Below are positions 5,555 through 57,193 of a stretch of 64,000 nucleotides of DNA, piece by piece. The position numbers were made by a program, and so were the translations under genes. How positions within the stretch are numbered: position 1 is the stretch's first letter; each line of letters begins with the position of its first letter. The notes under the pieces were generated by a model that ran no database searches, was not told the origin of the DNA, and was given only the letters and a program-made list of their open reading frames with translations. Source of the DNA: a virus; IMG/VR virus record IMGVR_UViG_3300020419_000013, positions 1-64,000 of that record; one strand, 5' to 3'.

Positions 5555-5919
5555 TGAGTGGTTTTGGTGAGCAGCCAGGTCGTAAGAGACATAAGGACTG
5601 GGCAGATAAATCTCTACAAAAAACAACAAGAGAATTAAAAGTCCTTCGTGATGTCATTGAAAAGTATAAGGATGATCCAAAGGGTCGTGCTAAGATGCTT
5701 AAGAAGATGAAAAGGTATTGGAATAGTCCTATTCAGACTATCAGAGATCTAGATATGAAACCTAGTGGAAAGAATATAGTTGACGAATTGAGAGAAATAC
5801 CTTATGATAAGATGGTGGAAGACTATCGAGAAGAAGTCGGTATAGATTCTCCCCATGACCCTGTTGATACTACAACAGACGAGGCAGAAAACATTAGAAA
5901 TTATCTAGAAGGTAAATGA
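5554..5919 (+). CDS. Hypothetical basic/acidic helical protein
   Basis: The product has 121 residues. The first two thirds are strongly basic and helical (KRHKDWADKSLQKTTRELK); the tail is acidic (DPVDTTTDEAEN). The start overlaps the stop of the giant structural gene, and its own stop overlaps the start of the halogenase-like gene, so the three are probably translationally coupled. The charge pattern would suit a small scaffold or nucleic-acid binder, but no family is recognised. Confidence 0.7.
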   Translation: MSGFGEQPGRKRHKDWADKSLQKTTRELKVLRDVIEKYKDDPKGRAKMLKKMKRYWNSPIQTIRDLDMKPSGKNIVDELREIPYDKMVEDYREEVGIDSPHDPVDTTTDEAENIRNYLEGK

Positions 5920-7061
5920 AGGTAGCTGTGATCGGTAGAGGTAGTGGTGGATTGATTTCCATCATGAATCTATTGACGTACGACATCCAAGTCGATTGTT
6001 ATTATGATCCCGAAACTTCCCAACTCCCTGTCGGTGAGTCAACCACACCTCAATTTGCATCGCTGATTGAATGCACGTTAGGTTTAACCATTGATGATCT
6101 TATATCTCTTGGTCTTGCTTCACGCAAGAAAGGGATTGAGTTTGTTGGATGGGGTAAGTCTAAGCATTTCTATCATAGATTTATCTATCAAGATGCAATA
6201 CATTTCTATACCAAAACTCTTAACCCATTTCTTCAAGAGAATCTTGAGAAATATAAAGGGGTAAAGTTTATTGGCAAACGTGTTACTGCATTGAATGCAC
6301 TGCAGAATGAATACGATTTTGTTATTAACTGCTCGGGTGCTCTAAGCAATTATAGAAAAGAGATTGACATACCATGTGTTAATAGTGTATTATATTTTGA
6401 CGACCATAAAATACATGGTCATCCAGAGTATACATATCATCTGGCACATGAGTATGGGTGGAAGTTTAGTCTTCCTTTTCCTGAGAAGGGACTTTCTAGA
6501 ACGGGTTACCTCTACAACAGGAAGTATCAAACTCATCTCGACGCAGAGATCCTCTATTCACAAGGGGATCTTTATGAATGGGTGCCTTCATACGCACCCG
6601 ATATGATTGTCAATAACAAGTTGGCACTGAATGGTAACGCTTTACTATTCTTCGAGCCTCTTCAAGCACTTTCACTTCTTCATTACGATATGGTCGCAAA
6701 AAGAATCTGCGACTATATTGTTAATGGCCAAACATTAGAGGAGAAATTGCTAGGTAATCTCTGGTATCGTAGAATGATCGAGGCATACATTGATGCTCTC
6801 GCTTTTCATTATCAGTATGGTAGTGAGCACAATTCTGGATACTGGGAAGAGGTCAGTAAAAAAAGTGTCACAAGGGTTGGACACAAATGGTGGAATGATG
6901 GTATGCTTATACATCAGGTGCGATCTTCTTGGGAATCGGGTAGGAATACTCACCTAACAAGTCACCCTGATTACTACTACGCACCCGATCACACAGGCAT
7001 CTTCGGCATCACTTGCATGTATCAATTACATCAGGGACTGTCAGGAGGTGCACACCGTTGA
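5916..7061 (+). CDS. Short flavin-dependent tryptophan halogenase-like protein
   Basis: A 381-residue FAD protein related to the PrnA tryptophan halogenase family, which uses FADH2, O2 and chloride or bromide to halogenate an aromatic substrate. Visible signatures are the N-terminal dinucleotide motif GRGSGG (7-12), PVGESTTP (38-45), a Lys in ASRKKGIEF (K71, aligning with the active-site Lys of PrnA) and FEPLQ with Glu 247 at the position of the catalytic Glu. It is about 110-150 residues shorter than the two copies at 45-48 kb, and WxWxIP is replaced by a GWKFSLP variant. Substrate unknown; a related flavoprotein oxidase is possible. Confidence 0.75.
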   Translation: MKVAVIGRGSGGLISIMNLLTYDIQVDCYYDPETSQLPVGESTTPQFASLIECTLGLTIDDLISLGLASRKKGIEFVGWGKSKHFYHRFIYQDAIHFYTKTLNPFLQENLEKYKGVKFIGKRVTALNALQNEYDFVINCSGALSNYRKEIDIPCVNSVLYFDDHKIHGHPEYTYHLAHEYGWKFSLPFPEKGLSRTGYLYNRKYQTHLDAEILYSQGDLYEWVPSYAPDMIVNNKLALNGNALLFFEPLQALSLLHYDMVAKRICDYIVNGQTLEEKLLGNLWYRRMIEAYIDALAFHYQYGSEHNSGYWEEVSKKSVTRVGHKWWNDGMLIHQVRSSWESGRNTHLTSHPDYYYAPDHTGIFGITCMYQLHQGLSGGAHR

Positions 7062-41331: not shown

Positions 41332-42141
41332 ATGGCACTATTAAGAGTAAATACAATTCAAGATACGTCAGGTGTTAATGGTTTTAGTATCACTAACACT
41401 ACCATCTCGATCAATGGTACATTGACTGTTAGTGATCTAGTAGTAAACGGAGTTATCTCTGGATCATCATCTTATATCGTACCTTCACAGTCAGGTCAAG
41501 GTGGAAAGTTTATGACTACTGATGGATCTAATCCGTCATGGTCAGCATTGACAACAAGATCTGGAATCAGATCCATGTCAGTGTTTACTGGTAATGGCAC
41601 ATGGTCTAGACCAGATGAATGTAAAAACATCATGGTAACATGTGTTGGTGCAGGTGGTGGAGGATCAGGTTATACTGAATCAGGTGGTGCAGGCGGTATG
41701 TCACAACGTCAAGTTGATGTGCAGAATGTCAGCTCAGTATCAGTAACAGTAGGAAATCCTGGTGGTGGCACAAACTACTCAGGGTGTGGTGGTAATGGAA
41801 ACACATCATCATTCGGTGGATATTGTAGTGCATCTGGTGGGGTAGGAGCTAATTGCTCTCAGCAACATGCAGGTGGATATGGTGGAAACGGTAGTGGTGG
41901 TCAACTGAATGTGCATGGTGGCGGGGGTAATGGTCATGGATCACACCATAGTTATGGTAACTATTGCTCTGGTGTAAGTTATTATGGAGGTGGACAACCT
42001 GGTGGACACAACCAAGTAAACTGGTCACATAGACATGAATTACACGCAGCGTGGGGATCTGGTGGAAATGGATCTCGACATAGTAACAGAGGTGCCCGAG
42101 GTCGTGAGGGTATTGTTGTTGTGCATGAGTATTGGGGTTAA
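41332..42141 (+). CDS. Glycine-rich tail adhesin, copy 1
   Basis: 269 residues. N-terminal attachment part (MALLRVNTIQDTSGVNGFS, ISINGTLTVSDLVVNG), a small beta domain with SVFTGNGTWSRP, then more than 120 residues of Gly-rich loops rich in His, Asn, Ser and aromatic residues (GAGGGGSGY, GNPGGGTNYSGCGG, HGGGGNGHGSHH), and a closing strand GIVVVHEYW. The plan resembles the glycine-loop adhesins of T-even phages (gp38), where loops determine receptor choice. Two further copies follow. Confidence 0.75.
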   Translation: MALLRVNTIQDTSGVNGFSITNTTISINGTLTVSDLVVNGVISGSSSYIVPSQSGQGGKFMTTDGSNPSWSALTTRSGIRSMSVFTGNGTWSRPDECKNIMVTCVGAGGGGSGYTESGGAGGMSQRQVDVQNVSSVSVTVGNPGGGTNYSGCGGNGNTSSFGGYCSASGGVGANCSQQHAGGYGGNGSGGQLNVHGGGGNGHGSHHSYGNYCSGVSYYGGGQPGGHNQVNWSHRHELHAAWGSGGNGSRHSNRGARGREGIVVVHEYWG

Positions 42142-42144
42142 CTA

Positions 42145-43734
42145 ATGAGTTTATTAAAAGTATCATCTATTAATGATCTAACCGACACAGGTGGATTTTC
42201 TCTATCTAATGGTGGGGTAACTGCTACACTTCCTTTAGTAGTAGGTAATATTATAATCAACGGAGCGATATCAGGTAATTCTGGACATATCATTCCAAGA
42301 CAGGCAGGAAATGCCGAGAAATTATTGCAGACTGATGGATCTAACCTTTCATGGGTAGAAGCAGCAGGACTTGCAGGTATTAGAAGTATGCAGGTGTGGA
42401 CTGGTAACGGTACTTGGAATAGACCGTCAGACTGCACTAGTATCATGGTCACAGCCGTCGGAGCAGGTGGTGGTGGATCAGGATATTGTGAGGCAGGTGG
42501 AGCAGGAGGAATGTCTCAACGTGTCATCGATGTAAACAACGTAACATCTGTATCAGTAACAGTAGGAAATCCTGGCGGAGGTACAAACTACGCAGGATGT
42601 GGTGGAAACGGTAACTCTTCAAGTTTCGGCTCCTATGTGACTGGTGGAGGTGGAGGAGGATCAAATTGTATTCAGCAGCACGAAGGTGGTTTAGGGGGAG
42701 AAGGTATTGGTGGTACACTAAACGTATTTGGTGGAGGAGGAAACGCCCACGGATCCCATCATTCCTACGGAAACCACGCAGGAGGAGCAAGTTACTACGG
42801 AGGTAGTCAGCCGTCTTCTCATAACCAAGGTAACTATAGTCACAGACATGAAGCTCACTCAGCATGGGGTGCAGGTGGTAACGGATCACAGCACGGTAAT
42901 AGAGGTGCTAGTGGTAGACAGGGAGTTGTCGTAGTCCACGAATACTACGGTAAACCATCATCACCAGATACCAGTTATGGTCAATCATCTGGCAACCCTG
43001 CCCAGTCTGCAGAGGAAATCAAGATTAGAAATCCTGGTGCAGGTGATGGAGTTTATTGGATTAACCTACCTGGCGTAGGAGCAACACAAATCTATTGTCT
43101 AATGGATAATAGATGGTTAGGTGGTGGATGGATGATGGGTATGAAAGCAACTAGGGGCACCACATTTAACTGGGATTCTAGTTACTGGACATCTAACAAC
43201 ACTCTCAACACAGGATCAACAAATACCAACGATGGTGATGCTAAGTTTGAGGTTATGAATAGATTCCTTGCCAAGGACATCATGGGAATCTGGCCAGATA
43301 TTGGTAATGGTGGATGTATTCCCGACACCAATAGAGGATGGACATGGTTTGAGACAGACTTCAACACAGGATATGGTAGAGGTGGTAGGATTGAGCCTAT
43401 TAACTTCTGGAATCAGGTAGATAGATTCTATAAATCTAATGCCAACGAATTTTGTGGTATTGGACAATTCTCTGGACAGTCACACGTTAGATTCTACGGA
43501 TTTAACTACAGAAACAATCCAGGTTGGGCACGCACACGTTGGGGATTCGGATGGAATGAAAACGGTGGTGGGTCTGGTGGATATCCAGAAGCGGATATGA
43601 ACTCTGATGACGTATCAGGTGGTATTGGTATGAGTGGTAACTTTGGTAGTTACTCAGCAGGAGATCGTATCAACTGTTGCCAGAACCGTAACGGAATAAA
43701 TAGATCAGCAAGGATTGAATTGTACTTCAGATGA
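42145..43734 (+). CDS. Glycine-rich tail adhesin, copy 2, with fibrinogen-like domain
   Basis: 529 residues. The first 270 residues match the other two adhesins (RSMQVWTGNGTWNRP, GAGGGGSGYCEAGGAGG, VVVVHEYYG). From about residue 290 an extra domain follows: GAGDGVYWINLPGVG, IYCLMDNRWLGGGWMMGM and cysteines at later positions (NGGCIPD, EFCGIG, INCCQN). This is the pattern of fibrinogen-related lectin domains (GxYxI ... VYCDM ... GGGW). It probably binds a host surface sugar or protein. The next adhesin starts inside its stop. Confidence 0.75.
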   Translation: MSLLKVSSINDLTDTGGFSLSNGGVTATLPLVVGNIIINGAISGNSGHIIPRQAGNAEKLLQTDGSNLSWVEAAGLAGIRSMQVWTGNGTWNRPSDCTSIMVTAVGAGGGGSGYCEAGGAGGMSQRVIDVNNVTSVSVTVGNPGGGTNYAGCGGNGNSSSFGSYVTGGGGGGSNCIQQHEGGLGGEGIGGTLNVFGGGGNAHGSHHSYGNHAGGASYYGGSQPSSHNQGNYSHRHEAHSAWGAGGNGSQHGNRGASGRQGVVVVHEYYGKPSSPDTSYGQSSGNPAQSAEEIKIRNPGAGDGVYWINLPGVGATQIYCLMDNRWLGGGWMMGMKATRGTTFNWDSSYWTSNNTLNTGSTNTNDGDAKFEVMNRFLAKDIMGIWPDIGNGGCIPDTNRGWTWFETDFNTGYGRGGRIEPINFWNQVDRFYKSNANEFCGIGQFSGQSHVRFYGFNYRNNPGWARTRWGFGWNENGGGSGGYPEADMNSDDVSGGIGMSGNFGSYSAGDRINCCQNRNGINRSARIELYFR

Positions 43735-44540
43735 GCACACTTAGAGTTAACAATGTAAAAGACCTTGCAGGTATCTCAGGGTTTGAATTAAGCACTGGTG
43801 GTATTATTGCCAATGCTACATTGATCGTGGGAGATATTACCATCAACGGTAGTGTTACTGGATCATCAAAATATATTATCCCTAACATGTCAGGTCAGTC
43901 AGGAAAATTCCTGCAGACTGATGGCACAAACCTTTCATGGGTAGAAGCATCATCCGTCTCTGGATTTAGATCAATGCAGGTCTGGACATCTAATGGCACA
44001 TGGAGCAAACCTGCTGACTGTAAAACTATCATGGTTACAGTATTAGGTGCAGGTGGCGGAGGATCAGGATATTGCGAAGCAGGTGGTGCAGGTGGTATGT
44101 CACAGAGAGTTATCGATGTGCAAAATGTCAGCTCAGTATCTGTTACAGTAGGAAATCCTGGTGGCGGTACTAACTACTCTGGATGTGGTGGCAACGGCAA
44201 CTCATCTAGTTTTGGTGGTTATTGCTCAGCAGGTGGTGGTGTTGGTGCAAATTGCTCACAACAACACGCAGGTGGATATGGTGGTAACGGCTCAGGTGGT
44301 GACCTAAACGTCCACGGAGGTGGTGGTAATGGTCATGGATCCCATCACTCATATGGTAACCACGCAGGTGGTAGATCATACTACGGTGGATCGCAACCCT
44401 CATCACACAACCAAGGCAACTATTCTCATAGACACGAAGGTCATAGTGCATGGGGAGCAGGTGGTAACGGATCACAGCACGGTAATAGAGGTGCCTCTGG
44501 ACGTGTTGGCGTGGTAGTAGTCCACGAATATTATGGCTAA
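43731..44540 (+). CDS. Glycine-rich tail adhesin, copy 3
   Basis: 269 residues with the same N-terminus (MSTLRVNNVKDLAGISGFEL), beta domain and Gly-rich loops as copies 1 and 2. Its middle is close to copy 1 (NVSSVSVTVGNPGGG, NCSQQHAGGYGGNGSG), whereas its end is close to copy 2 (WGAGGNGSQHGNRGASGR), so it looks like a mosaic. The ending VVVVHEYYG is shared with copy 2. The stop lies in a CTAAATA box. Confidence 0.75.
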   Translation: MSTLRVNNVKDLAGISGFELSTGGIIANATLIVGDITINGSVTGSSKYIIPNMSGQSGKFLQTDGTNLSWVEASSVSGFRSMQVWTSNGTWSKPADCKTIMVTVLGAGGGGSGYCEAGGAGGMSQRVIDVQNVSSVSVTVGNPGGGTNYSGCGGNGNSSSFGGYCSAGGGVGANCSQQHAGGYGGNGSGGDLNVHGGGGNGHGSHHSYGNHAGGRSYYGGSQPSSHNQGNYSHRHEGHSAWGAGGNGSQHGNRGASGRVGVVVVHEYYG

Positions 44541-44543
44541 ATA
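44537..44543 (+). promoter_or_regulatory. Late promoter box CTAAATA
   Basis: CTAAATA overlaps the stop of adhesin copy 3, 24 bases before the ATG at 44568. Confidence 0.55.
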
Positions 44544-44567: not shown

Positions 44568-44975
44568 ATGAAAAAAGCAATTATCCACGGAGAGTCTGGA
44601 ATTATCACAGACATCTGTGAAGAAGGAGACGAATTTCAGATCTACGATGGTGCTGACGCAACTATGAAGTGGATGGAAGTCCCTGACGACACAACTAACG
44701 AGCATCGTATGGTCAACGGTGTCATCTACCCAAGAGTAGAATTAGAAAATCAAGCAGAAGCATATCTTGTTGCACGCACGATTGCCTATGGTTCTGTGGG
44801 TGAGCAATTAGACATGCTCTATAAAGACCAAGTTAATGGCACAACAACATTTAAAGACCACGTTGCAGCAGTAAAAGCAAACGTACCTAGTCCAAGTAGT
44901 GCACCTGCATTTACAGAGGATGTTAAGAAAGTGCAAGTAACAGGCAGAATGGCTTGGGATCCATACCCAAGTTAA
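44568..44975 (+). CDS. Fibre-associated protein, possible assembly chaperone
   Basis: 135 residues. The segment IAYGSVGEQLDMLYKDQVNGTTTFKD resembles a recurrent motif (YGSIGDQLDxLY) at the end of phage tail fibre assembly proteins and fibre tips. The N-terminus forms beta strands (KAIIHGESGIITDI). It directly follows the adhesins, as tail fibre chaperones often do. Assignment rests on position and this motif. Confidence 0.6.
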   Translation: MKKAIIHGESGIITDICEEGDEFQIYDGADATMKWMEVPDDTTNEHRMVNGVIYPRVELENQAEAYLVARTIAYGSVGEQLDMLYKDQVNGTTTFKDHVAAVKANVPSPSSAPAFTEDVKKVQVTGRMAWDPYPS

Positions 44976-44984
44976 GAAAAGTAT

Positions 44985-44992
44985 GCTATAAT
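44985..44992 (+). promoter_or_regulatory. Extended -10 promoter TGCTATAAT before the halogenases
   Basis: TGC then TATAAT (44987-44992), with seven bases to the ATG at 45000, so initiation would be at or near the start codon. No good -35. It marks the change from late fibre genes to the enzyme block. Confidence 0.5.
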
Positions 44993-44999
44993 CTATAGT

Positions 45000-46475
45000 A
45001 TGAAGATTTACATTATTGGTGGTGGGTCATCTGGATGGATGACAGCAACCACAATGCTGACAAAATTTCCCGAAGCAAACATCACAGTCGTAGAGTCGCC
45101 TGATACACCCCCTGTTGGTGTAGGTGAGTCTACGACTCAGTATTTTAGGATATGGGCAGAATATGTAGGACTCAAAGATGAAGAGTGGATGCCTGCATGT
45201 GATGCCACATATAAGATTAGTGTAAGATTTAGTAACTTTAATAAGGTAGATGACACACCATGGCAATATCCATTTGGTTATCATATCCAAGATCTACCTC
45301 AACCTGATGTTTATTTTTGGAATGCATATAAGAATAACTGGAGTAATGATAAATTTGCCCGAGAATATTTTGTATCAGCAGAAGCAGCAGAAAATAATTT
45401 ACTACCCATCAAGCATCCAAACTTTAATCTTAAAAAGAATACTGGATTTCATTTTGATGCAGTAAAGTTTGCACACTGGTTAAAAGACAACAAATGCCAG
45501 AAGGTAAATCATATTATTGGTAAGGTAGATGATTTTGAGAAGGATGGAGACGAAATAAAATATCTATGGATAGATGAGAAACAACATGAAGCAGATTTAT
45601 ATTTTGATTGCACTGGATTTGCATCAGTACTTAATAAGTCTGAGTGGTTAGATTATAGTGAGTGGTTACCAAATGATACAGCATGGGTAACACGTCTAGA
45701 CTATAGGGAAGGACATAAGAAAGAGGATCTCAAATCATATACACAGTGCACAGCATTGAGTAGTGGATGGGTGTGGACAGTGCCCACATTTGCCAGAATT
45801 GGGACAGGATATGTATTCTCTAGTAAGCATCAAGATCATCAGAGTGCATTAACAGAGTTTTCAAAATTTCTTAAGTATGATACTGATGGATTTAGGAAAA
45901 TACATTTCAAGACAGGCAGAAAGAAAGAAGGATGGGTTGGTAATGTAGTGTCTATTGGTTTATCATATGGATTCCTAGAGCCATTGGAATCTAATGGTCT
46001 GTTATCAACACATGATAACTTGTTAAGATTCTGTAGGACGTGGAAACCGAACACCACTCAAATGATGAGAGATACATATAACAAGGCGATAGCATTTGGT
46101 TTCGATGGGTTTGCAAGTTTCGTTGCTCTTCATTATGCTCTTACTCAACGTAGGGATTCTTCTTATTGGAGATATGTCTCAAGTATTAGATATCCTGATA
46201 AGGGGATAAATGAAGCAGCAAGAGTCACAATGATGGAAGAGTCACATAATTTTTCCAGTAAACTAAACTTCAATCACAGCAGTGGTGCTTCACTGTTTTG
46301 TGTCATGGCAGGTCATGGATGGAATCCATTTAATGATGTCATTGAAAGTGAGATTAATTTTCATGGTGGAATACCTGATGACTCACATCTAAACAGTTGG
46401 ACACATGAGTGGAATCGTGATAGACTGGGAGTTAATCCTTTAGATTATTATAATAGGACATTGTATGCAGTATAG
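45000..46475 (+). CDS. Flavin-dependent tryptophan halogenase, copy 1
   Basis: 491 residues, similar in size to PrnA/RebH enzymes. FAD-binding GGGSSGW at 7-13, PVGVGEST at 38-45, the WxWxIP-type motif WVWTVP at 257-262, the active-site Lys 72 in ATYKISVRF and Glu 327 in FLEPLES are all present. It should convert FADH2, O2 and halide to hypohalous acid and halogenate an aromatic substrate such as tryptophan, free or peptide-bound. No flavin reductase is visible nearby; the host would have to supply one. It overlaps the second copy by 11 bases. Confidence 0.88.
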   Translation: MKIYIIGGGSSGWMTATTMLTKFPEANITVVESPDTPPVGVGESTTQYFRIWAEYVGLKDEEWMPACDATYKISVRFSNFNKVDDTPWQYPFGYHIQDLPQPDVYFWNAYKNNWSNDKFAREYFVSAEAAENNLLPIKHPNFNLKKNTGFHFDAVKFAHWLKDNKCQKVNHIIGKVDDFEKDGDEIKYLWIDEKQHEADLYFDCTGFASVLNKSEWLDYSEWLPNDTAWVTRLDYREGHKKEDLKSYTQCTALSSGWVWTVPTFARIGTGYVFSSKHQDHQSALTEFSKFLKYDTDGFRKIHFKTGRKKEGWVGNVVSIGLSYGFLEPLESNGLLSTHDNLLRFCRTWKPNTTQMMRDTYNKAIAFGFDGFASFVALHYALTQRRDSSYWRYVSSIRYPDKGINEAARVTMMEESHNFSSKLNFNHSSGASLFCVMAGHGWNPFNDVIESEINFHGGIPDDSHLNSWTHEWNRDRLGVNPLDYYNRTLYAV

Positions 46476-48069
46476 ATCATTTTGTATTGTAGGTGGTGGG
46501 TCATCTGGTTGGATGGCAGCAGCAACAATGAAGAAGGCATTCCCAGAGTGTGAGGTCAGTCTCATACAACCTGAGGGTAGAAATATTATTGGTGTAGGAG
46601 AGTCTACTTTAGGACATATCAATAGGTTTTTTAGATTTCTTGGATTACATGACAAGGAGTGGATGCCATATTGTAATGCCACATATAAATCATCTATTGC
46701 ATTTAAGAATTTTAGGACAGGAGAGGGAGAGAGATTTCAATATCCATTCGGACGTATAGATCGCAACGATTATCGTAGTGATTATATGACATTCTTTGAG
46801 TTGCAAGTAAAGTATCCACACTTGTATCCACCCGAAGAGTTTGCACGTTTCTTTAATCCAAATACTATTCTGGCAGAAGAGAATAAACTAACGTCTGATT
46901 ATATTTCCGAAGAAATGCGTAATTGGAATTTTGGTCAAGACACTGCATACCACATGGATAGTCACAAGTTTGGTGAGTATCTACAAAAGAAATTTCCTGA
47001 GGTAAAAGTATACACAGGTAATGTAATCAATGCCACTCGAGGTGAGACTGGTGACGTTATCACTATGAATACAGATAGTGGTGATAGAATCATGGCAGAT
47101 CTTTATATTGATTGCACAGGTTTTAAATCCCTGATCCTAGAAAATATGATGGGATCGAAGTTTGTATCATTTAATGATGTATTGTTTAATGACACAGCGT
47201 GGTCAGCAAAGGTAGAGTATTCAGATCGTATCATACAGATGGATAACTATACAGATTGTGTAGCAATGTCTAATGGATGGATCTGGAATATACCACTATG
47301 GGATAGAGTGGGGATGGGTTATGTATTCAGTCAGAAATATCTTGACCCTGACATAGCACAGGCAGAGTTTATGGGTTATATAGCACAACGCTATTCGCCC
47401 AAAATTGCCGACAATGCTGATTATCGCCTGATTAATATCAGACATGGTAAGAGAGAGAAAGCATGGGTCAATAATGTTGTAGGTATTGGACTAGCATATG
47501 GTTTCCTCGAGCCACTAGAGTCTACTGGACTCATGACTACACATGAGAATCTATTATATCTCGTGGATAGTCTCAAACGTCGTCCTATTACAACTAAGAT
47601 TGATATCGATAGTTATAACTACACTGTAGATCATGCGATTGAGTCTATGAAATACTTTATCGCTATGCATTATTTGTTATCTCAACGTCAAGATACAAAG
47701 TATTGGGTAGATGCTACTCAAAACACATCTATGTTTAGTAATCATGACTTAACACAATACATGAATGATTGCCTAGGATGGCATTCTATGCTAGAATCAC
47801 GAAGGGAATACTTCCAACTCTATGAAGGGTTAAGAAAGAATTTCTGGGCAGATAATAAATTTGATGGACTAATTTATATCGCAGCAGGTCAAGCATACAG
47901 ACCAATTAATGAGCATAGTGTGGATGAAGCACACTTTATTTTCCCACGTCGCAAAGGTGAGGTGGAAAGAGTGCATCAAGATTGGCAGCGTGACCGTAAA
48001 GCGATATATAATCAGGTGAGTCAACTACCAACACACTATGAGTATCTAAGGGATAACATCTATGGTTAA
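46465..48069 (+). CDS. Flavin-dependent tryptophan halogenase, copy 2
   Basis: 534 residues. GGGSSGW at 10-16, IGVGEST near 42-48, Lys 75 in ATYKSSIAF, WIWNIP at 272-277 and Glu 349 in FLEPLES keep all halogenase signatures. It shares the core but is clearly diverged from copy 1, so different substrates or positions are likely. Length matches PrnA. It overlaps copy 1 and the DUF6065-like gene, consistent with one operon. Confidence 0.88.
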   Translation: MQYRSFCIVGGGSSGWMAAATMKKAFPECEVSLIQPEGRNIIGVGESTLGHINRFFRFLGLHDKEWMPYCNATYKSSIAFKNFRTGEGERFQYPFGRIDRNDYRSDYMTFFELQVKYPHLYPPEEFARFFNPNTILAEENKLTSDYISEEMRNWNFGQDTAYHMDSHKFGEYLQKKFPEVKVYTGNVINATRGETGDVITMNTDSGDRIMADLYIDCTGFKSLILENMMGSKFVSFNDVLFNDTAWSAKVEYSDRIIQMDNYTDCVAMSNGWIWNIPLWDRVGMGYVFSQKYLDPDIAQAEFMGYIAQRYSPKIADNADYRLINIRHGKREKAWVNNVVGIGLAYGFLEPLESTGLMTTHENLLYLVDSLKRRPITTKIDIDSYNYTVDHAIESMKYFIAMHYLLSQRQDTKYWVDATQNTSMFSNHDLTQYMNDCLGWHSMLESRREYFQLYEGLRKNFWADNKFDGLIYIAAGQAYRPINEHSVDEAHFIFPRRKGEVERVHQDWQRDRKAIYNQVSQLPTHYEYLRDNIYG

Positions 48070-48928
48070 AAAACTATGGAAGAAAATTAAAGGTAAGTTT
48101 CAGAAACCGTGGATCCGTTTTTATTCAATGGATGCAGGGGTTGCTGAATTTTATCCTTTATATCCATCTCAGAAATTGAAACGTCAATGGCGAATCAATA
48201 CACTGAAGGAGCAACATAAGAATAAATCTGATTGCCCTGTTGTAGCACTCAAAGAAACCTTTGATAAGCTAAAGATGGAGGACAAAGGTATCAAGGAGCA
48301 TGCAGCAACTTGCCCTGCACTCACTCAGATCATGGACAGTGGTTGGATTTTGCCTGCACCTGCCGACTTCGCTATCCGTCCCAATAAAGAGAAAGGCACA
48401 TTCCAATGGGTGACACGTCAGTTATTTGTTGGTGGTAAATATGTCACGTCTCATATTGAGAGACAGACAGATGGAATGCGTGATCTTGTAAGTAAAGGAC
48501 AGGATACGTTAGGACAGGTGGTGAAACTAGAGACACCGTGGAGGGTTATGGCACACCCCGATGTTTGCATCCTACAGATACCAGTATCTTATAGCGATGA
48601 CATGCGTTTCTCAGCACCTACAGGGATCGTTGATCCATCATTCTCATATGAGATCAACTTGCAACTGTTTTGGCATGCTATGGAGGGAGACCACATAGTT
48701 GAAGCGGGCACACCATTGTGTCAATGGATTCCAATTCCACGCAAATGGTTGGACACAAAAGAGTTTGATGTCATTATTGAGACCGCCAATAATGAGGACT
48801 TTAAAGCAGAAAGGATGATGGATTATCTCAAGACTAAATCGTTTATTGAGAATACCAAACTAAATGACCGCATTAAAGATCACAAGAAAATTAACTCACT
48901 AAATAAAAATCTAAAGAGGTTTGATTAA
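48062..48928 (+). CDS. DUF6065-like protein
   Basis: 288 residues. WIRFYSMDAGVAEFYPLYPS, a later CPALTQIMDSGWILPAPADF and SYEINLQLFWHAMEGD with GTPLCQWIPIPR match my memory of DUF6065, a family found near oxygenases and halogenases. No clear cofactor motif is seen. The operon position suggests that it acts with the halogenases or oxygenases, perhaps in substrate recognition. The tail is highly charged and helical. Confidence 0.6.
   Translation: MVKKLWKKIKGKFQKPWIRFYSMDAGVAEFYPLYPSQKLKRQWRINTLKEQHKNKSDCPVVALKETFDKLKMEDKGIKEHAATCPALTQIMDSGWILPAPADFAIRPNKEKGTFQWVTRQLFVGGKYVTSHIERQTDGMRDLVSKGQDTLGQVVKLETPWRVMAHPDVCILQIPVSYSDDMRFSAPTGIVDPSFSYEINLQLFWHAMEGDHIVEAGTPLCQWIPIPRKWLDTKEFDVIIETANNEDFKAERMMDYLKTKSFIENTKLNDRIKDHKKINSLNKNLKRFD
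48899..48905 (+). promoter_or_regulatory. CTAAATA box inside the enzyme block
   Basis: CTAAATA occurs in the last codons of the DUF6065-like gene, 23 bases before the ATG at 48928. It could place the following genes under late control. Confidence 0.4.
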
Positions 48929-49296
48929 TGGAAGCAGAAAATCTTAGTAGTCCAACTACGGATGAAGTAAAACTCAATGAGTTAGCAGGTGTATCACCTG
49001 AGGAAAAACAAGGTATCTATTGTGATGAGGATGGTAACCCCGTCAAACTCACATACGATCAGTTAGTCCAAGACTTTTGCGATCAGCATAAAGATTGCAT
49101 GGCAGACTATAAGAAGATGGGAGAGGCACTAGACAATATGTCTTACTCATCTACTGTTACTCGTGTATCTCTTGAAGGATTACAGGAGAAAAAGGATAAA
49201 CTAAACAAACTACAAGGTGCAGTTGAAGCACTATATCTTTATAAGATGCATGTTGACCCAACTGTAACTGACAAAGATTTTACATTTGAAGAATAA
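48928..49296 (+). CDS. Coiled-coil hypothetical protein
   Basis: 122 residues. A mostly polar N-terminus with EEKQGIYCDEDGNPVKLTYD and a long helix with LEGLQEKKDKLNKLQGAVEAL. The last 20 residues are acidic. No enzyme motif is visible; possibly a structural partner. It ends immediately before the first oxygenase of the cluster. Confidence 0.62.
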   Translation: MEAENLSSPTTDEVKLNELAGVSPEEKQGIYCDEDGNPVKLTYDQLVQDFCDQHKDCMADYKKMGEALDNMSYSSTVTRVSLEGLQEKKDKLNKLQGAVEALYLYKMHVDPTVTDKDFTFEE

Positions 49297-49977
49297 ATGA
49301 TTAAATGTGATTATTGGTTTCCTCGTGGCATTTGGCACAAGGAAGACTGTGGACTTGATACAGATCATTTTAATGAATTTGCCACTATACATCGTGGATC
49401 GATGTCAGGTAGGAAAGCATCGAATGAGGGTGGATTCCAGTCATTTGACTGGGGTAGTGAAAGAATGCACACAATTAAACCACTATCTAACTTAACAGAA
49501 GCAGTTTATGATGTCGTAGATGTTGCATGTCAAGATCTAGGTTTCAAAGACTACGCTATGTTGTTAACAAATGGGTGGTTAAACATAAATGGACCTGGTG
49601 ATCTTAATCATGTACATACACATCCTGGTGCAATGTTTGCAGGAGTTTATTACTCAAAAATGCCCGAGAAATGTGGTGGTATCACGTTTATGAGACCTCT
49701 TGATGAGTTGCATATGTTTAAATCATGGGGCACAGGACATAACTACGACCATGGCACTAACCCATTAAACTTTGAAGTAGCAGCATATGACCCTAAACCA
49801 GATCAGTTGTTTATATTTCCTGCAAACTTGATGCACAAGGTCGAAACAAACAGGGGTAGTGAAGAAAGAATCTCTTACTCATTCAACATTACATTATACT
49901 CTAAGCATATTAATTATGGTAGTATCCAGAAGTCTATCGAATCTTTTAACAACAACGTATCTGAATCGTCTGACTGA
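49297..49977 (+). CDS. 2OG-Fe(II) oxygenase of the 2OG-FeII_Oxy_5 type
   Basis: 226 residues. HVHTHPGAMFAGVYYSKMP gives the first ligand motif, GGITFMRP the central strand, and FIFPANLMHKVETNRG with RISYSFNI supplies the distal His and the Arg that binds 2-oxoglutarate. These enzymes are common in cyanophages and couple 2-oxoglutarate decarboxylation to substrate hydroxylation. The substrate is unknown. It is the first of five consecutive oxygenase genes. Confidence 0.85.
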   Translation: MIKCDYWFPRGIWHKEDCGLDTDHFNEFATIHRGSMSGRKASNEGGFQSFDWGSERMHTIKPLSNLTEAVYDVVDVACQDLGFKDYAMLLTNGWLNINGPGDLNHVHTHPGAMFAGVYYSKMPEKCGGITFMRPLDELHMFKSWGTGHNYDHGTNPLNFEVAAYDPKPDQLFIFPANLMHKVETNRGSEERISYSFNITLYSKHINYGSIQKSIESFNNNVSESSD

Positions 49978-49981
49978 TACA

Positions 49982-50590
49982 ATGACTAGTCGAGGGTTTC
50001 CGTGGTATTTTCTACCACATGATGTGACCTTTGGCAGTGGTTATAACTATGCATTTGGCGATGTTAATCTGAATACAGATGACACGGATCTGAAATCCCC
50101 ACCTAAACAAACTAGTGTGGGATGGACTCATGTGTTATATCATGATGGCAACCCAGTCTCACAGTATTATGATCTCTTTATTCCTATTGTAGATCACATT
50201 CAAGATAGATTAGGTGTTGGTATCTTTGAGTTGTTTAGACTCAGGTTGGCAATGCTACATCATAATCATTTCGTAGAAGATTATAATACACCACATACAG
50301 ATCATGATAGTAAACACATGACTGGCATATATTATTTCCACGATAGCGATGGGGATACTATTCTATTCGATCAACTCGATGACCCCAACGGTGATGTTAA
50401 CCAACGGATCACCGATATATTTGCACAGGAGTATACAATAGCAGAGAGACATAAACCAGAGAAGAATAAGTTTATATTGTTTGATGGAAATAGATTCCAC
50501 GCATCATCTAATCCTAGAATTAATCAGTATAGGATGGTGTTAAACTTTAACTTCAGACAGATGCCCGATGACATTCTTACTTCCGCTTAA
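49982..50590 (+). CDS. 2OG-Fe(II) oxygenase, prolyl-hydroxylase-like
   Basis: 202 residues from ATG 49982; an in-frame start 123 bases upstream lies inside the previous gene. HTDHDSKHMTGIYYFHDS gives HxD, then KFILFDGNRFHASSNP gives the distal His, and the Arg follows in NQYRMVLNFNF. This HxD...H...R order is the complete facial triad plus cosubstrate residue. It differs from the neighbouring Oxy_5-type genes and resembles the prolyl 4-hydroxylase superfamily. Overlaps the JmjC-like gene by 23 bases. Confidence 0.83.
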   Translation: MTSRGFPWYFLPHDVTFGSGYNYAFGDVNLNTDDTDLKSPPKQTSVGWTHVLYHDGNPVSQYYDLFIPIVDHIQDRLGVGIFELFRLRLAMLHHNHFVEDYNTPHTDHDSKHMTGIYYFHDSDGDTILFDQLDDPNGDVNQRITDIFAQEYTIAERHKPEKNKFILFDGNRFHASSNPRINQYRMVLNFNFRQMPDDILTSA

Positions 50591-51290
50591 ATTATTTGAT
50601 AGAAATTGGGATCATGATTTGCCATTTTATTATGAGCAGGTCATGGATAAGAAAGAGTGTGATGATATATGCACATGGAAAGATGTTGAATATTGCCTTA
50701 ACTTGCCCAATTTTTTTGACATCGATGTAGTAAGTAAACACCAGATACAAAAGATAAATCCACAGAAACATCCAAGATCGTGGGCAGCACAAGGATGGGA
50801 AGAGAAGAGCGAGTTGTTTCAACTATTCAAGGAAGGTCACACATTCATTATTAATAACTATTCTTATAGAAATGAGAAGGTGATGGATATGTTAGATCAA
50901 TGGTCAAGTATATTCTCAGGTGATAGTCAGTTTCAAATATATTGTGGGATGGGACAGTCAAATAGTTTCTATATACATGAGGACTTGCCAAGTAATTTTA
51001 TTGTGCAGTTGCGAGGTAAAACTAAATGGAAAGTATTTAACGAAAGGAGAGCAACATTTGTTTCTCAAGCACCACCAGGTGATGGACAGGTAGACTATGA
51101 TAGTTTTACACCTGCTATCGATGTGGAGTTAAATGCAGGTGACGCACTATACATACCACCACGTTGTTATCATCAAGCACAACCAAGCGAAGAGAGAATA
51201 TCTCTAAGCATACCAGTCCACCACTATTCTTTATATCATGCTCACAGCATTACCAGACCAGTCGATTGGAAATGGTATAACCTCTATTAA
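50568..51290 (+). CDS. JmjC/cupin-like oxygenase
   Basis: 240 residues. FYIHEDLPSNFIVQLRGKTKWKVF, then DVELNAGDALYIPPRCYHQAQ is the JmjC (cupin_4/ROXA-like) pattern: HxD/E replaced by HED with the distal His in YHQAQ, and a basic residue in the RGKTKW strand for 2-oxoglutarate. Members hydroxylate proteins, including ribosomal proteins. It starts inside the previous gene, and its end overlaps the next by 53 bases, an unusually long overlap. Confidence 0.75.
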   Translation: MTFLLPLKLFDRNWDHDLPFYYEQVMDKKECDDICTWKDVEYCLNLPNFFDIDVVSKHQIQKINPQKHPRSWAAQGWEEKSELFQLFKEGHTFIINNYSYRNEKVMDMLDQWSSIFSGDSQFQIYCGMGQSNSFYIHEDLPSNFIVQLRGKTKWKVFNERRATFVSQAPPGDGQVDYDSFTPAIDVELNAGDALYIPPRCYHQAQPSEERISLSIPVHHYSLYHAHSITRPVDWKWYNLY

Positions 51291-51951
51291 TCCATATCCA
51301 TTCATACTTAAATCACAATATAATCTCTCAGATATATGGAAAGATATCAAGGGAGAGACAGATATCTTTTTGGATTTTATTGAGAGTCCAGACTCTACAT
51401 ATAAAAACTCAGCACTAGAGAAGGGGGGCACATCATCCGTGGGTAGATGTAGAGTTGACCCACCACACGGATGGAAAATTTTTAGTGACCTTACTAACAA
51501 TCATATCCCTAGTGTAGTAGATCAAATTTGGGACATGTGGTCACTTAAAGGTGTCTATCGTAATATGACTGAGAGTTGGATTAATAGACACCCACCCAAG
51601 GCAACAACCTTAGAGCATCATCATCACAATGTAACCGTTGCAATCGTTGCATACTTAGATGTGCCAGAAGACAGTGGTAACCTGCAAATTCTTAACCCTT
51701 TGCATACATTTAAGTATGCAGAACCAGTAGATGATGGATATGAAATGCCTAGACAAGATCACTGGATTGAGATACCAGTTAAGACAAATGATATAGTATA
51801 TTTTCCTGGTTGGTTAAAGCATAGGACAGGAGCAAACAACAGTGATACCAATCGATATGTATTAACTATGAATGTCACAGCATATGAAATGACTAACATA
51901 GATAGAGGTGGATATGATGAGTTTAATAATACTATTGGTTTTATAGAATGA
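51238..51951 (+). CDS. 2OG-Fe(II) oxygenase of the 2OG-FeII_Oxy_5 type
   Basis: 237 residues. LEHHHHNVTVAIVAYLDVPED supplies the first ligands, NLQILNPL the central strand, and YFPGWLKHRTGANN with RYVLTMNV supplies distal His and Arg. The Oxy_5 layout is shared with 49297 and 11533, but there is an extra N-terminal segment with NPYPFILKSQ. The start overlaps the previous gene by 53 bases; no later ATG exists before the domain. Substrate unknown. Confidence 0.8.
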   Translation: MLTALPDQSIGNGITSINPYPFILKSQYNLSDIWKDIKGETDIFLDFIESPDSTYKNSALEKGGTSSVGRCRVDPPHGWKIFSDLTNNHIPSVVDQIWDMWSLKGVYRNMTESWINRHPPKATTLEHHHHNVTVAIVAYLDVPEDSGNLQILNPLHTFKYAEPVDDGYEMPRQDHWIEIPVKTNDIVYFPGWLKHRTGANNSDTNRYVLTMNVTAYEMTNIDRGGYDEFNNTIGFIE

Positions 51952-52661
51952 AGCATCCATTAATTAAAATATATGATACTGACATACTGGACGATGATAT
52001 TTGTCGTCAAGCGATTGAGTTACCTTATTATCATGGACGCCAAGATTTGCCTGCACCTAATCTGGAAGAGGTAGATCTTAGAGGGACATACTACACACAT
52101 GATTTCTATAGTGTAGATCATCATGGAAGTAAACCTTTCGATCAATGCTCAGGTCATCATCTATATCAATGGGTGTTAGATAGACTCGAAGTTTGCTCAC
52201 ATGTGCCCGTACCTGCTCGTGATACGTTATACAGTGCATATATGAATGTATTGAAACATGGTGATGCACCTCGTATACATTGCGATGCACCGTCATGGGT
52301 TGATAATCAATGCACTATGATAGTATATTTTAATCAGAAGTGGAATCCTAACTTTGGAGGTGAAACTATATTCTATGATGACCAGTTAGATATTGTGCAC
52401 GCAGTCGTCCCAAAACCAGGTAGAGTGGTCATTTTCGATGGTAGGATACCACACTCAGGACGCACACCAACACCCTATTTCTTATGGAATAGATATATGA
52501 TGGCATTCAAGTTTATGGGTAAAGAGGTGAGGAATGAGTTACTTGACTGGGGAAGTAAGAATCACCCATATAAAGATGATGACATGGGTATAGCAGGATT
52601 TAGTCCTAGTAAAGTCAAGGAGTTAATGTATGAGCAAACCCTGTTATTCTGGACAAAATAA
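51948..52661 (+). CDS. 2OG-Fe(II) oxygenase, prolyl-hydroxylase-like
   Basis: 237 residues. RIHCDAPSWVDNQCTMIVYF gives HxD, GGETIFYDD the central motif, and RVVIFDGRIPHSGRTP gives the distal His with a following Arg in WNRYMMAF. This layout is typical of prolyl 4-hydroxylase-like phage enzymes. The start overlaps the previous stop by four bases; it is the last gene of the oxygenase block. Confidence 0.85.
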   Translation: MKHPLIKIYDTDILDDDICRQAIELPYYHGRQDLPAPNLEEVDLRGTYYTHDFYSVDHHGSKPFDQCSGHHLYQWVLDRLEVCSHVPVPARDTLYSAYMNVLKHGDAPRIHCDAPSWVDNQCTMIVYFNQKWNPNFGGETIFYDDQLDIVHAVVPKPGRVVIFDGRIPHSGRTPTPYFLWNRYMMAFKFMGKEVRNELLDWGSKNHPYKDDDMGIAGFSPSKVKELMYEQTLLFWTK

Positions 52662-56448: not shown

Positions 56449-56660
56449 CTAATTTAATTGATAAGAATGACCCATTATGGTTTGCACAAACAAGTAATAA
56501 ACCATATGATAGGCACCATTATAAAGTAATATCCAAATCAGGTGAGACAAATGTGTTGACTTCCTATGATGAGGTGATCGAGACATGGTGGAATAAACGT
56601 CATTTTATAGATAGAATTGAAGTAATTGACAAACCAAAAAAGAGGGGTAAAGGTTTTTGA
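56445..56660 (+). CDS. Small basic hypothetical protein
   Basis: 71 residues, MTNLIDKNDPLWFAQTSNKP and YDEVIETWWNKRHFIDRI, ending with a basic tail (PKKRGKGF). It overlaps the previous and the next gene by four bases each. Function unknown. Confidence 0.55.
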   Translation: MTNLIDKNDPLWFAQTSNKPYDRHHYKVISKSGETNVLTSYDEVIETWWNKRHFIDRIEVIDKPKKRGKGF

Positions 56661-57193
56661 TTGAAGTTGTTAGTGGGTTATTTCCTGACTGGTTAGTAGA
56701 TCAGACAGCACAAAAACTCAGTGAGTATCCTATACGATGGACAAATAGTCCATACGCATGTTATGATAAGGCACGATTCTTTGGCACAATGGTAGTCAGA
56801 AATGGTGAATTTATTGGTGCCGAGGATTCATGGTTTATAAAATACTTTAATGCTATGATGGAGCACCGACTACAGGCACATACATTAAGGACACTATTAA
56901 ATGTGCAATTTAATAATATGGACAGTCAGATACACAACGATGGTGACGTCAACAGTCTAGTGTCAGTTGTGTATCATGTAGCAGGCACCGATGGTGATAC
57001 AGTATTTTACAATAGTGCAAACGAGGAAATTAAAAGAGTCCCTTTTAATATGGGTCAAGCGATTATTTTCCCATCGCACATTTATCACATGGGACTACCA
57101 CCCAAGAGTGGCATACGAGTGACCCTAGGGTCAATCTATGATGTGGCAGATCAACAAGTGGCACAAGACACCACTCTACGACTAGTAGCATAG
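56657..57193 (+). CDS. 2OG-Fe(II) oxygenase-like protein
   Basis: 178 residues from a TTG overlapping the previous stop (TTGA). QIHNDGDVNSLVSVVYHV gives HND (an HxD variant), DGDTVFYN the central strand, FPSHIYHMG the distal His and RVTLGSIYD the Arg. This is a seventh oxygenase in the window, counting the partial one at the right edge as an eighth. The C-terminal region carries copy 3 of the compound element, so regulation of the following genes overlaps its coding sequence. Confidence 0.75.
   Translation: MIEVVSGLFPDWLVDQTAQKLSEYPIRWTNSPYACYDKARFFGTMVVRNGEFIGAEDSWFIKYFNAMMEHRLQAHTLRTLLNVQFNNMDSQIHNDGDVNSLVSVVYHVAGTDGDTVFYNSANEEIKRVPFNMGQAIIFPSHIYHMGLPPKSGIRVTLGSIYDVADQQVAQDTTLRLVA

What the first reader, a model, noticed from the sequence alone, without database searches (positions are those of the whole stretch)
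44568..52661. Halogenase/oxygenase block directly after the tail adhesins
Two full-length flavin-dependent halogenases with intact Lys, Glu and WxWxIP-type motifs, a DUF6065-like protein, a coiled-coil protein and five Fe(II)-dependent oxygenases of three types lie in one overlapping run next to three adhesins rich in Gly, His, Tyr, Trp and Asn. A virion-protein modification module (hydroxylation, halogenation) is a testable idea; a small-molecule pathway acting on the host is the alternative. I know of no described phage pathway with this set.
Basis: inference. Interest (0 to 1): 0.78.

Follow-up and report, generated by a model that had tools for sequence, protein, structure and literature searches.

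The report
Halogenase-hydroxylase module tied to phage adhesins
In marine cyanophages, genes for halogen-adding and hydroxyl-adding enzymes travel with the genes for the glycine- and histidine-rich tips of the tail fibres, which suggests that these viruses chemically finish their own host-binding proteins.

Summary
The block is real. Two intact flavin-dependent halogenases, five Fe(II)/2OG-type oxygenases (one JmjC), a dUTPase-fold protein and a small protein follow three glycine-rich tail adhesins. Cyanophage P-TIM40 has the same block, collinear; the halogenases are closest to VirX1 of cyanophage Syn10, whose natural substrate I found nowhere stated. New here is the linkage. Of 68 metagenomic halogenase loci with enough upstream DNA, 59 have this adhesin family within 3.5 kb. 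Starting from adhesins instead, 53 of 56 loci have a halogenase within 8 kb, four of them on the opposite strand. Among generically found Gly-rich tail proteins, all 11 with a nearby halogenase are His-rich, against 2 of 20 without. Halogenases of three clades take part. The adhesin model matches the receptor-binding fibre of cyanophage Pam3 (Z 20.8); the JmjC protein's nearest solved relatives are protein hydroxylases (NO66, YcfD). A published S-SZBM1 virion proteome reports the preceding fibre proteins but not the adhesins. Best reading: a tail-adhesin maturation module (halogenation plus hydroxylation). Modification itself is unproven, residue-level sites are confounded by ancestry, and some halogenases have no adhesin nearby. 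I found no such proposal in the papers searched.

The parts
41332..42141 (+). Gly-rich tail adhesin 1
   Evidence: PF21722 E 2.8e-13; phrog_863 tail fiber assembly
42145..43734 (+). Gly-rich tail adhesin 2, with an extra C-terminal domain (phrog_1325, about 276-499)
   Evidence: PF21722; phrog_863, phrog_1325
43731..44540 (+). Gly-rich tail adhesin 3; residues E116, Y149, H179, H202 and the distal block H233/H235/H238 are conserved in halogenase-linked homologues
   Evidence: PF21722; AF2 pLDDT 80.9; Pam3 fibre Z 20.8, rmsd 2.5 over 182 residues; conservation
44537..44543 (+). CTAAATA motif (late-promoter-like) at the junction before the block; the same motif precedes fibre-region genes 32919, 36498, 40093 and 41332
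   Evidence: within 60 nt upstream of 10 of 70 gene starts, the most of all 105 anagrams
44568..44975 (+). small protein (phrog_1787), typically next after the adhesins; candidate tail-fibre chaperone by position only
   Evidence: phrog_1787 E 4.4e-27; gene order; no sequence match to a solved chaperone
45000..46475 (+). flavin-dependent halogenase HAL1, motifs intact
   Evidence: PF04820 E 5.9e-92; VirX1 6qgm 287.5 bits; motifs
46465..48069 (+). flavin-dependent halogenase HAL2, VirX1-like, motifs intact
   Evidence: PF04820 E 6.9e-97; VirX1 6qgm 459 bits; motifs
48062..48928 (+). phrog_7084 / weakly DUF6065-like protein with a predicted dUTPase fold plus helices
   Evidence: phrog_7084 E 3.1e-69; AF2 pLDDT 89.0; dUTPases Z up to 9.7
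48928..49296 (+). small conserved protein of the block (family found in 57 of the loci profiled)
49297..49977 (+). 2OG-Fe(II)-type oxygenase, PF13759 class, HxH motif
   Evidence: PF13759 E 2.2e-20
49982..50590 (+). 2OG-Fe(II)-type oxygenase, PF13640-like (phrog_274), HTD...H
50568..51290 (+). JmjC_2/cupin oxygenase, HED...H; nearest solved chains NO66 histidyl hydroxylase and YcfD arginine hydroxylase
   Evidence: PF08007 E 2.1e-16
51238..51951 (+). 2OG-Fe(II)-type oxygenase, PF13759 class
   Evidence: PF13759 E 1.1e-15
51948..52661 (+). 2OG-Fe(II)-type oxygenase, PF13640 class, HCD...H
   Evidence: PF13640 E 1.4e-9

Best explanation
The block is an enzymatic maturation module for the tail adhesins encoded just upstream. 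Late in infection the Gly-rich adhesins (tail-fibre tips) are made together with a small candidate chaperone (phrog_1787), one or two VirX1-type halogenases, and a set of 2OG and JmjC oxygenases. Using host-supplied reduced flavin, halide, O2 and 2-oxoglutarate, these enzymes halogenate and hydroxylate side chains on the adhesins before or during assembly, tuning adhesion, stability or receptor choice. Shown here: the genes, their intact motifs, the adhesin fold and the tight, two-way, rearrangement-surviving linkage. Inferred: that the adhesins are the substrate and that covalent modification happens. Only suggested: Tyr149 and His179/His202 as halogenase-linked sites, and the distal His block as a site for the JmjC enzyme.
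For: (1) Linkage from the halogenase side: 59 of 68 metagenomic loci with at least 3.5 kb upstream have an adhesin within 3.5 kb; named phages 10 of 11, against a rotation null with mean 0.9 and maximum 6 in 20,000. (2) Linkage from the adhesin side: 53 of 56 loci (25 of 28 not already in the halogenase set) have a halogenase within 8 kb. (3) It survives inversion: L160, L161, L172 and L178 carry the enzymes on the opposite strand. It occurs at different genome sites, after fibre genes (P-TIM40, syn9) or before neck gene gp13 (S-RIM44, Sf-FP1). (4) Halogenases of three clades sit beside adhesins. (5) Generic Gly-rich seeds: all 11 with a halogenase have 6 or more His, 2 of 20 without have 5. 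(6) Adhesin fold = Pam3 fibre, Z 20.8; in Pam3 the Gly-rich domain is assigned to receptor binding (PMC9608196, abstract and passages). (7) JmjC nearest solved relatives are protein hydroxylases NO66/YcfD. (8) VirX1 has an unusually open active site and takes bulky aromatics (PMC8407142, passages). (9) A late-promoter-like motif leads the block.
Against: No modification has been observed. 9 of 68 metagenomic loci and phage S-B64 have VirX1-like halogenases without this adhesin nearby, and all 7 phages with divergent halogenases lack PF21722 within 4 kb, several of those halogenases lying near psbA, hli or talC. Loci are related, so counts are not independent. JmjC presence against the distal His block: 17 of 103 loci discordant, and only 5 independent pairs, not significant. 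The S-SZBM1 virion proteome did not list the adhesins at all, so they may not be in that virion. The conserved His could instead bind metal (recalled for T4 gp37). The CTAAATA motif is only weakly conserved before phrog_1787 in relatives (12 of 89 segments, next anagram 10).
Confidence: 0.6

Rival explanations
1. Small-molecule (auxiliary metabolic) pathway: the halogenases and oxygenases make or alter a metabolite in the infected host, and the block merely sits in the recombination-prone tail-fibre region.
For: The published reading: host metabolite or antibiotic protection (PMC10452541; PMC2984593; PMC9964418), or a secondary metabolite/capsule system in S-SSM6a (PMC7824862). VirX1 accepts many small aromatics. 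Some halogenases sit without adhesins near psbA, hli or talC.
Against: A passive hot spot predicts mixed cargo and loose linkage; instead the same enzyme families follow the same adhesin family in both search directions, also when inverted, and adhesin composition tracks halogenase presence. None of the ten block proteins hits a scaffold-building enzyme, ligase or transporter family.
Confidence: 0.17
2. The enzymes belong to the adhesion function but act on another target, for example another fibre protein or the host surface (receptor masking, superinfection exclusion).
For: The linkage data fit any adhesion-related target; the adhesins were not listed in one virion proteome that did list the larger fibre proteins S-SZBM1_51 to _54.
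Against: It is the adhesins whose His content and Y149/H179/H202 separate halogenase-linked from unlinked proteins; the larger fibre proteins were not examined in this way.
Confidence: 0.17
3. Nucleic-acid or nucleotide modification: a dUTPase-fold protein with oxygenases and halogenases makes modified bases.
For: phrog_7084 has a dUTPase fold; some 2OG proteins are annotated 'DNA endonuclease V', and DNA repair has been proposed for phage 2OG oxygenases (PMC3037559; PMC9146016).
Against: Minimal units (adhesins, phrog_1787, halogenase) exist without the dUTPase-fold gene, e.g. L071, L074, L098; the oxygenase families are JmjC_2/PF13640/PF13759, not TET/JBP; the position is with tail genes.
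Confidence: 0.06

Closest known systems
VirX1, flavin-dependent halogenase of cyanophage Syn10 (PDB 6qgm)
   Same: Best solved match of both halogenases (287.5 and 459 bits); tandem halogenase pair beside Gly-rich proteins also in syn9, which matches the queries like Syn10 does
   Different: Described as a broad in vitro catalyst (PMC8407142); neither the adhesin linkage nor a natural substrate was reported in the passages I read (the original 2019 paper was not held)
Cyanophage P-TIM40 block PTIM40_42-54
   Same: Same genes in the same order, 82.6% DNA identity over the halogenases
   Different: Only the two halogenases are named in KP211958; the rest are hypothetical proteins
Cyanophage Pam3 fibre gp24 with chaperone gp25
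   Same: Adhesin fold (Z 20.8); a dedicated chaperone gene of neighbouring number (PMC9608196)
   Different: phrog_1787 has no detectable sequence match to a solved chaperone; no halogenase is mentioned in the passages read
S-SSM6a-type cyanophage halogenase cluster (PMC7824862)
   Same: Halogenase with 2OG and cupin oxygenases; in S-SSM7, which I examined, it lies 6.9 kb from three PF21722 proteins
   Different: Divergent halogenase; carries carbamoyltransferase and sugar genes; proposed there as a secondary-metabolite or capsule system
RiPP tailoring by halogenases and oxygenases (e.g. MibH; recalled)
   Same: Enzymes encoded beside the gene of their polypeptide substrate
   Different: Here the candidate substrate is a folded virion adhesin, with no leader peptide or export system seen

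Membership tests
Flavin-dependent halogenase (VirX1 type) | PF04820 domain over full length | tested here: met
   309 and 326 bits, cut-off 21
Flavin-dependent halogenase (VirX1 type) | GxGxxG, WxWxIP-type motif, catalytic Lys and Glu | tested here: met
   GGGSSG; WVWTVP and WIWNIP; K72/K75; E330/E352; Lys and Glu invariant in 18 phage halogenases
Flavin-dependent halogenase (VirX1 type) | halogenation activity | not testable with these tools
   needs enzyme assay
2OG-Fe(II) oxygenase | Fe-binding HxD/E...H in the proteins at 49982, 50568 and 51948 | tested here: met
   HTD, HED, HCD with a later His
2OG-Fe(II) oxygenase | Fe-binding HxD/E...H in the proteins at 49297 and 51238 | tested here: inconclusive
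   HxH in place of HxD/E, though PF13759 is above its cut-off
NO66/YcfD ribosomal oxygenases | JmjC_2 catalytic domain | tested here: met
   PF08007 E 2.1e-16; NO66 E 7.1e-5
NO66/YcfD ribosomal oxygenases | full-length architecture with C-terminal domains (recalled) | tested here: not met
   240 aa here; solved chains 373-489 aa, only residues about 120-217 align. It is filed as 'works like', not as a member
dUTPase | fold | tested here: met
   Z 9.7, 128 residues, rmsd 4.6
dUTPase | the five catalytic motifs (recalled) | tested here: inconclusive
   By eye on the consensus: parts resembling motifs 3 and 4 are seen, no obvious RSS motif; no sequence match to solved dUTPases
Pam3-type tail-fibre adhesin | TNF-like plus Gly-rich fold | tested here: met
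   7ypx Z 20.8, 182 residues, rmsd 2.5
Pam3-type tail-fibre adhesin | dedicated chaperone | tested here: inconclusive
   phrog_1787 in the right place; no homology found
Secondary-metabolite gene cluster | scaffold-building enzyme in the cluster | tested here: not met
   none among the ten block proteins; four of them have no Pfam family above its cut-off

The most novel reading that the evidence does not exclude
Cyanophages build chemically finished adhesins: phage-encoded halogenases and hydroxylases install halogenated Tyr/His/Trp and hydroxylated residues on Gly/His-rich tail-fibre tips, comparable to the modified structural and adhesive proteins of marine animals (recalled). Iodide- and bromide-using VirX1-type enzymes would then be virion-maturation enzymes rather than metabolic genes, and many of the unexplained 2OG oxygenases of cyanophages would be adhesin hydroxylases.
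Probability: 0.5. Interest if true: 0.93.

Novelty: new variant of a known kind. Interest (0 to 1): 0.78.

Why it matters
Cyanophage halogenases and 2OG oxygenases are usually listed as auxiliary metabolic genes with guessed roles (host metabolites, antibiotic protection, nitrogen stress, DNA repair). A two-way, rearrangement-surviving link to one adhesin family gives them a concrete candidate substrate, possibly including VirX1, a biocatalyst whose natural substrate I found nowhere stated. If right, it adds halogenation and hydroxylation to the chemistry of phage host recognition, and it can be tested by re-searching existing virion mass-spectrometry data.

Tried and rejected
Considered and set aside: pyrrolnitrin-type synthesis (no partner enzymes in the block); PF01613 flavin reductase in the phage (0 of 12 records; the control genome Synechococcus elongatus has one, so host supply is plausible); halogenase number tracking Trp at position 241 (looked at by eye, no pattern); JmjC presence causing the distal His block (raw counts fit, 66+20 of 103 concordant, but only 5 independent pairs, not significant); TATAAATA as late promoter (4 matches, below the chance mean); CTAAATA is not in excess over the whole window (17 against 13.9 expected), only its position is notable; phrog_1787 homology to solved chaperones and Pfam families for it: none convincing; adhesin profile against PDB sequences: no match, only the fold matches. 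Cellular halogenases are at best 34% identical over the matched stretch, so no recent bacterial donor was found. My gene calls in scripts are simple ORF calls (60 aa minimum), and short or overlapping genes can be missed.

Literature: ten full-text searches of an open-access library. The searches that pair halogenase with tail fiber or adhesin, and phage oxygenases or hydroxylation with tail fiber, gave no paper proposing tail-adhesin modification by these enzymes in the passages read; not every listed paper was opened. The original VirX1 paper and the Syn9 genome paper were not read. PMC9964418 (passages) does mention protein modification as one generic possibility for 2OG oxygenases.
Full report
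WHAT IS THERE. The window is 64,000 of 67,102 bases of a virus record. By gene content it is a T4-like cyanophage, close to cyanophage P-TIM40. Between 41332 and 52661 all the genes point the same way and abut or overlap: three Gly-rich adhesins (PF21722, phrog_863), a small protein of phrog_1787, two full-length halogenases, a phrog_7084 protein, a small protein, and five oxygenases of three Pfam types. Three details change: the second oxygenase starts at about 49982; 'DUF6065-like' is only weakly supported by sequence (4 of 44 relatives, best E 0.0039), and the AlphaFold2 model (mean pLDDT 89.0) has a dUTPase fold (Z up to 9.7); Trp is not clearly enriched in the adhesins. P-TIM40 has the same block collinearly.

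THE ENZYMES. Both halogenases keep the flavin motif, the WxWxIP-type motif and the catalytic-type Lys and Glu. Their best solved match is VirX1 of cyanophage Syn10. Three oxygenases show HxD...H; the two PF13759 proteins show HxH. The JmjC protein is nearest to NO66 (a histidyl hydroxylase) and YcfD (an arginine hydroxylase of ribosomal protein L16), at E about 1e-4 and over about 100 residues only. No flavin reductase of PF01613 was found in any of 12 phage records searched, so the host would have to supply reduced flavin.

THE ADHESINS. The model of adhesin 43731-44540 (mean pLDDT 80.9) matches the cyanophage Pam3 fibre with Z 20.8, rmsd 2.5 over 182 residues. The next matches are a Bxb1 tail-tip protein (Z 15.2) and the glycine-rich domains of ALK/LTK (Z about 9). 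In Pam3 the Gly-rich domain is described as the distal, receptor-recognising part, assembled with a chaperone (PMC9608196; abstract, introduction, part of methods and passages).

LINKAGE, FROM THE HALOGENASE SIDE. In 18 named phages I compared whole-genome positions of PF04820 and PF21722. In 10 of 11 phages with a VirX1-clade halogenase a Gly-rich hit lies within 3 kb; random rotation gives a mean of 0.93 and never more than 6 in 20,000 draws; 0 of 7 phages with divergent halogenases show it. The exception is S-B64. From viral contigs I took 88 loci. Of 68 with at least 3.5 kb upstream, 59 have an adhesin within 3.5 kb on the same strand, 57 the phrog_1787 gene; of 61 with at least 5 kb downstream, 48 have two or more oxygenases within 8 kb and 47 the phrog_7084 gene. 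The typical order is adhesin x3, phrog_1787, one or two halogenases, phrog_7084, small protein, oxygenases, JmjC.

LINKAGE, FROM THE ADHESIN SIDE. In four loci (L160, L161, L172, L178) the halogenase and oxygenase genes sit on the opposite strand, so the link survives loss of co-transcription. The seed patterns came from halogenase-linked adhesins, so this search favours that subfamily. I therefore ran a third search from generic Gly-rich tail proteins: of 31 loci with at least 4.8 kb downstream, 11 have a halogenase; all 11 seed proteins have 6 or more His in the last 190 residues, while 2 of the 20 without a halogenase have 5 (Fisher p 9e-7, uncorrected for kinship). Five of those 20 (L272, L323, L334, L340, L341) have 2-4 oxygenases but no halogenase and few His.

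DIFFERENT SITES, DIFFERENT HALOGENASES. The block lies after the fibre genes in P-TIM40, syn9, P-RSM6, S-WAM1, S-SZBM1 and S-CREM1, but between a giant structural gene and neck gene gp13 in S-RIM44, Sf-FP1 and Sf-FR1. A quick tree of 121 representatives places adhesin-linked halogenases in three groups: 18 of 22 rows in the HAL1 group, 50 of 63 in the VirX1/HAL2 group, 7 of 18 in a divergent group (the 63-row group has SH-aLRT 94, and the search was the short one). In one set of lineages (e.g. L071, L074, L098) little more than the minimal unit adhesins, phrog_1787, halogenase is recognisable.

RESIDUES. In halogenase-linked adhesins, positions E116, Y149, H179 and H202 (numbering of 43731-44540) are almost invariant (for example Y149 in 129 of 132 with 3 gaps, H202 in 132 of 132) and are not conserved in 20 generic controls. 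In 33 adhesins from 11 halogenase-only loci these positions persist (33 of 33 each), while the distal block H233/H235/H238 is mostly gone (H238 0 of 33); in 208 adhesins from 76 JmjC-bearing loci H235 and H238 are His in 185 each. This would fit a JmjC-type histidine hydroxylase acting on the distal block. It is not independent of ancestry: 17 of 103 loci are discordant (10 with JmjC and no block, 7 the reverse), and there are only 5 independent pairs, not significant. I treat the sites as suggestions. Metal binding is another possible reason for conserved His (recalled for T4 gp37).

TIMING. CTAAATA lies within 60 nt upstream of 10 of 70 gene starts in the window, the most of all 105 anagrams (next 5, an overlapping word), among them fibre-region genes and phrog_1787 at 44568. 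The motif is not in excess overall, and in relatives it is only weakly conserved before phrog_1787 (12 of 89). I read it as a late-promoter-like hint, no more.

VIRION DATA. The S-SZBM1 virion proteome (PMC9146016; passages, methods section and Table 1) lists fibre-region proteins _51 to _54 but not the adhesins _48 and _49, nor halogenase _46, among 30 proteins. The adhesins have 9 and 7 tryptic peptides of ordinary size. So they are rare, absent from the particle, or modified beyond an ordinary search. The result cuts both ways and makes a re-search of those data the cheapest decisive test.

WHAT OTHERS HAVE SAID. Halogenases: host metabolites (PMC10452541, passages), antibiotic protection (PMC2984593, passages; PMC9964418, passages), secondary metabolite or capsule decoration in S-SSM6a (PMC7824862, passages). 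2OG oxygenases: nitrogen stress and DNA repair (PMC3037559, passages; PMC9146016, passages), with protein modification named generically (PMC9964418). None of the passages I read proposes the adhesins as substrate. VirX1 is reported as a trimer with a large, accessible active site preferring iodide (PMC8407142, passages). The original VirX1 paper was not available.

VERDICT. That the block serves the adhesins is well supported. That it modifies them chemically is the most likely mechanism (about 0.6) and is unproven. If true, it is a new chemistry within the known kind 'phage-encoded maturation or modification of virion proteins' (glycosylated virions are recalled as the nearest case). If not, the main alternatives are another adhesion-related target or a small-molecule pathway.

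Noticed in passing
5916-7061 (+): Third, short halogenase-like protein (381 aa, phrog_2928) with relatives in P-TIM40 and S-SSM7; the catalytic Glu motif reads EPLQ and the WxWxIP motif is lost, so it probably does not halogenate.
   Followed up: partly
56657-57193 (+): A further 2OG-type oxygenase (phrog_274) outside the block, after a methyltransferase-like gene.
   Followed up: no
48062-48928 (+): phrog_7084 proteins have a predicted dUTPase fold; what such a protein does beside halogenases is unknown.
   Followed up: partly
L272, L323, L334, L340, L341: Generic, His-poor Gly-rich tail proteins followed by 2-4 2OG oxygenases without a halogenase: oxygenases alone may also go with tail adhesins.
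   Followed up: partly
L082, L105: Arrays of four halogenase genes interleaved with oxygenases directly after the adhesin trio.
   Followed up: no
42145-43734 (+), C-terminal half: The middle adhesin carries an extra C-terminal domain (phrog_1325) that looks fibrinogen-like to the eye; not tested.
   Followed up: no
L020 (S-SSM7): A cluster of the type earlier called a secondary-metabolite system lies 6.9 kb from three PF21722 proteins, so it may belong to the same theme.
   Followed up: partly
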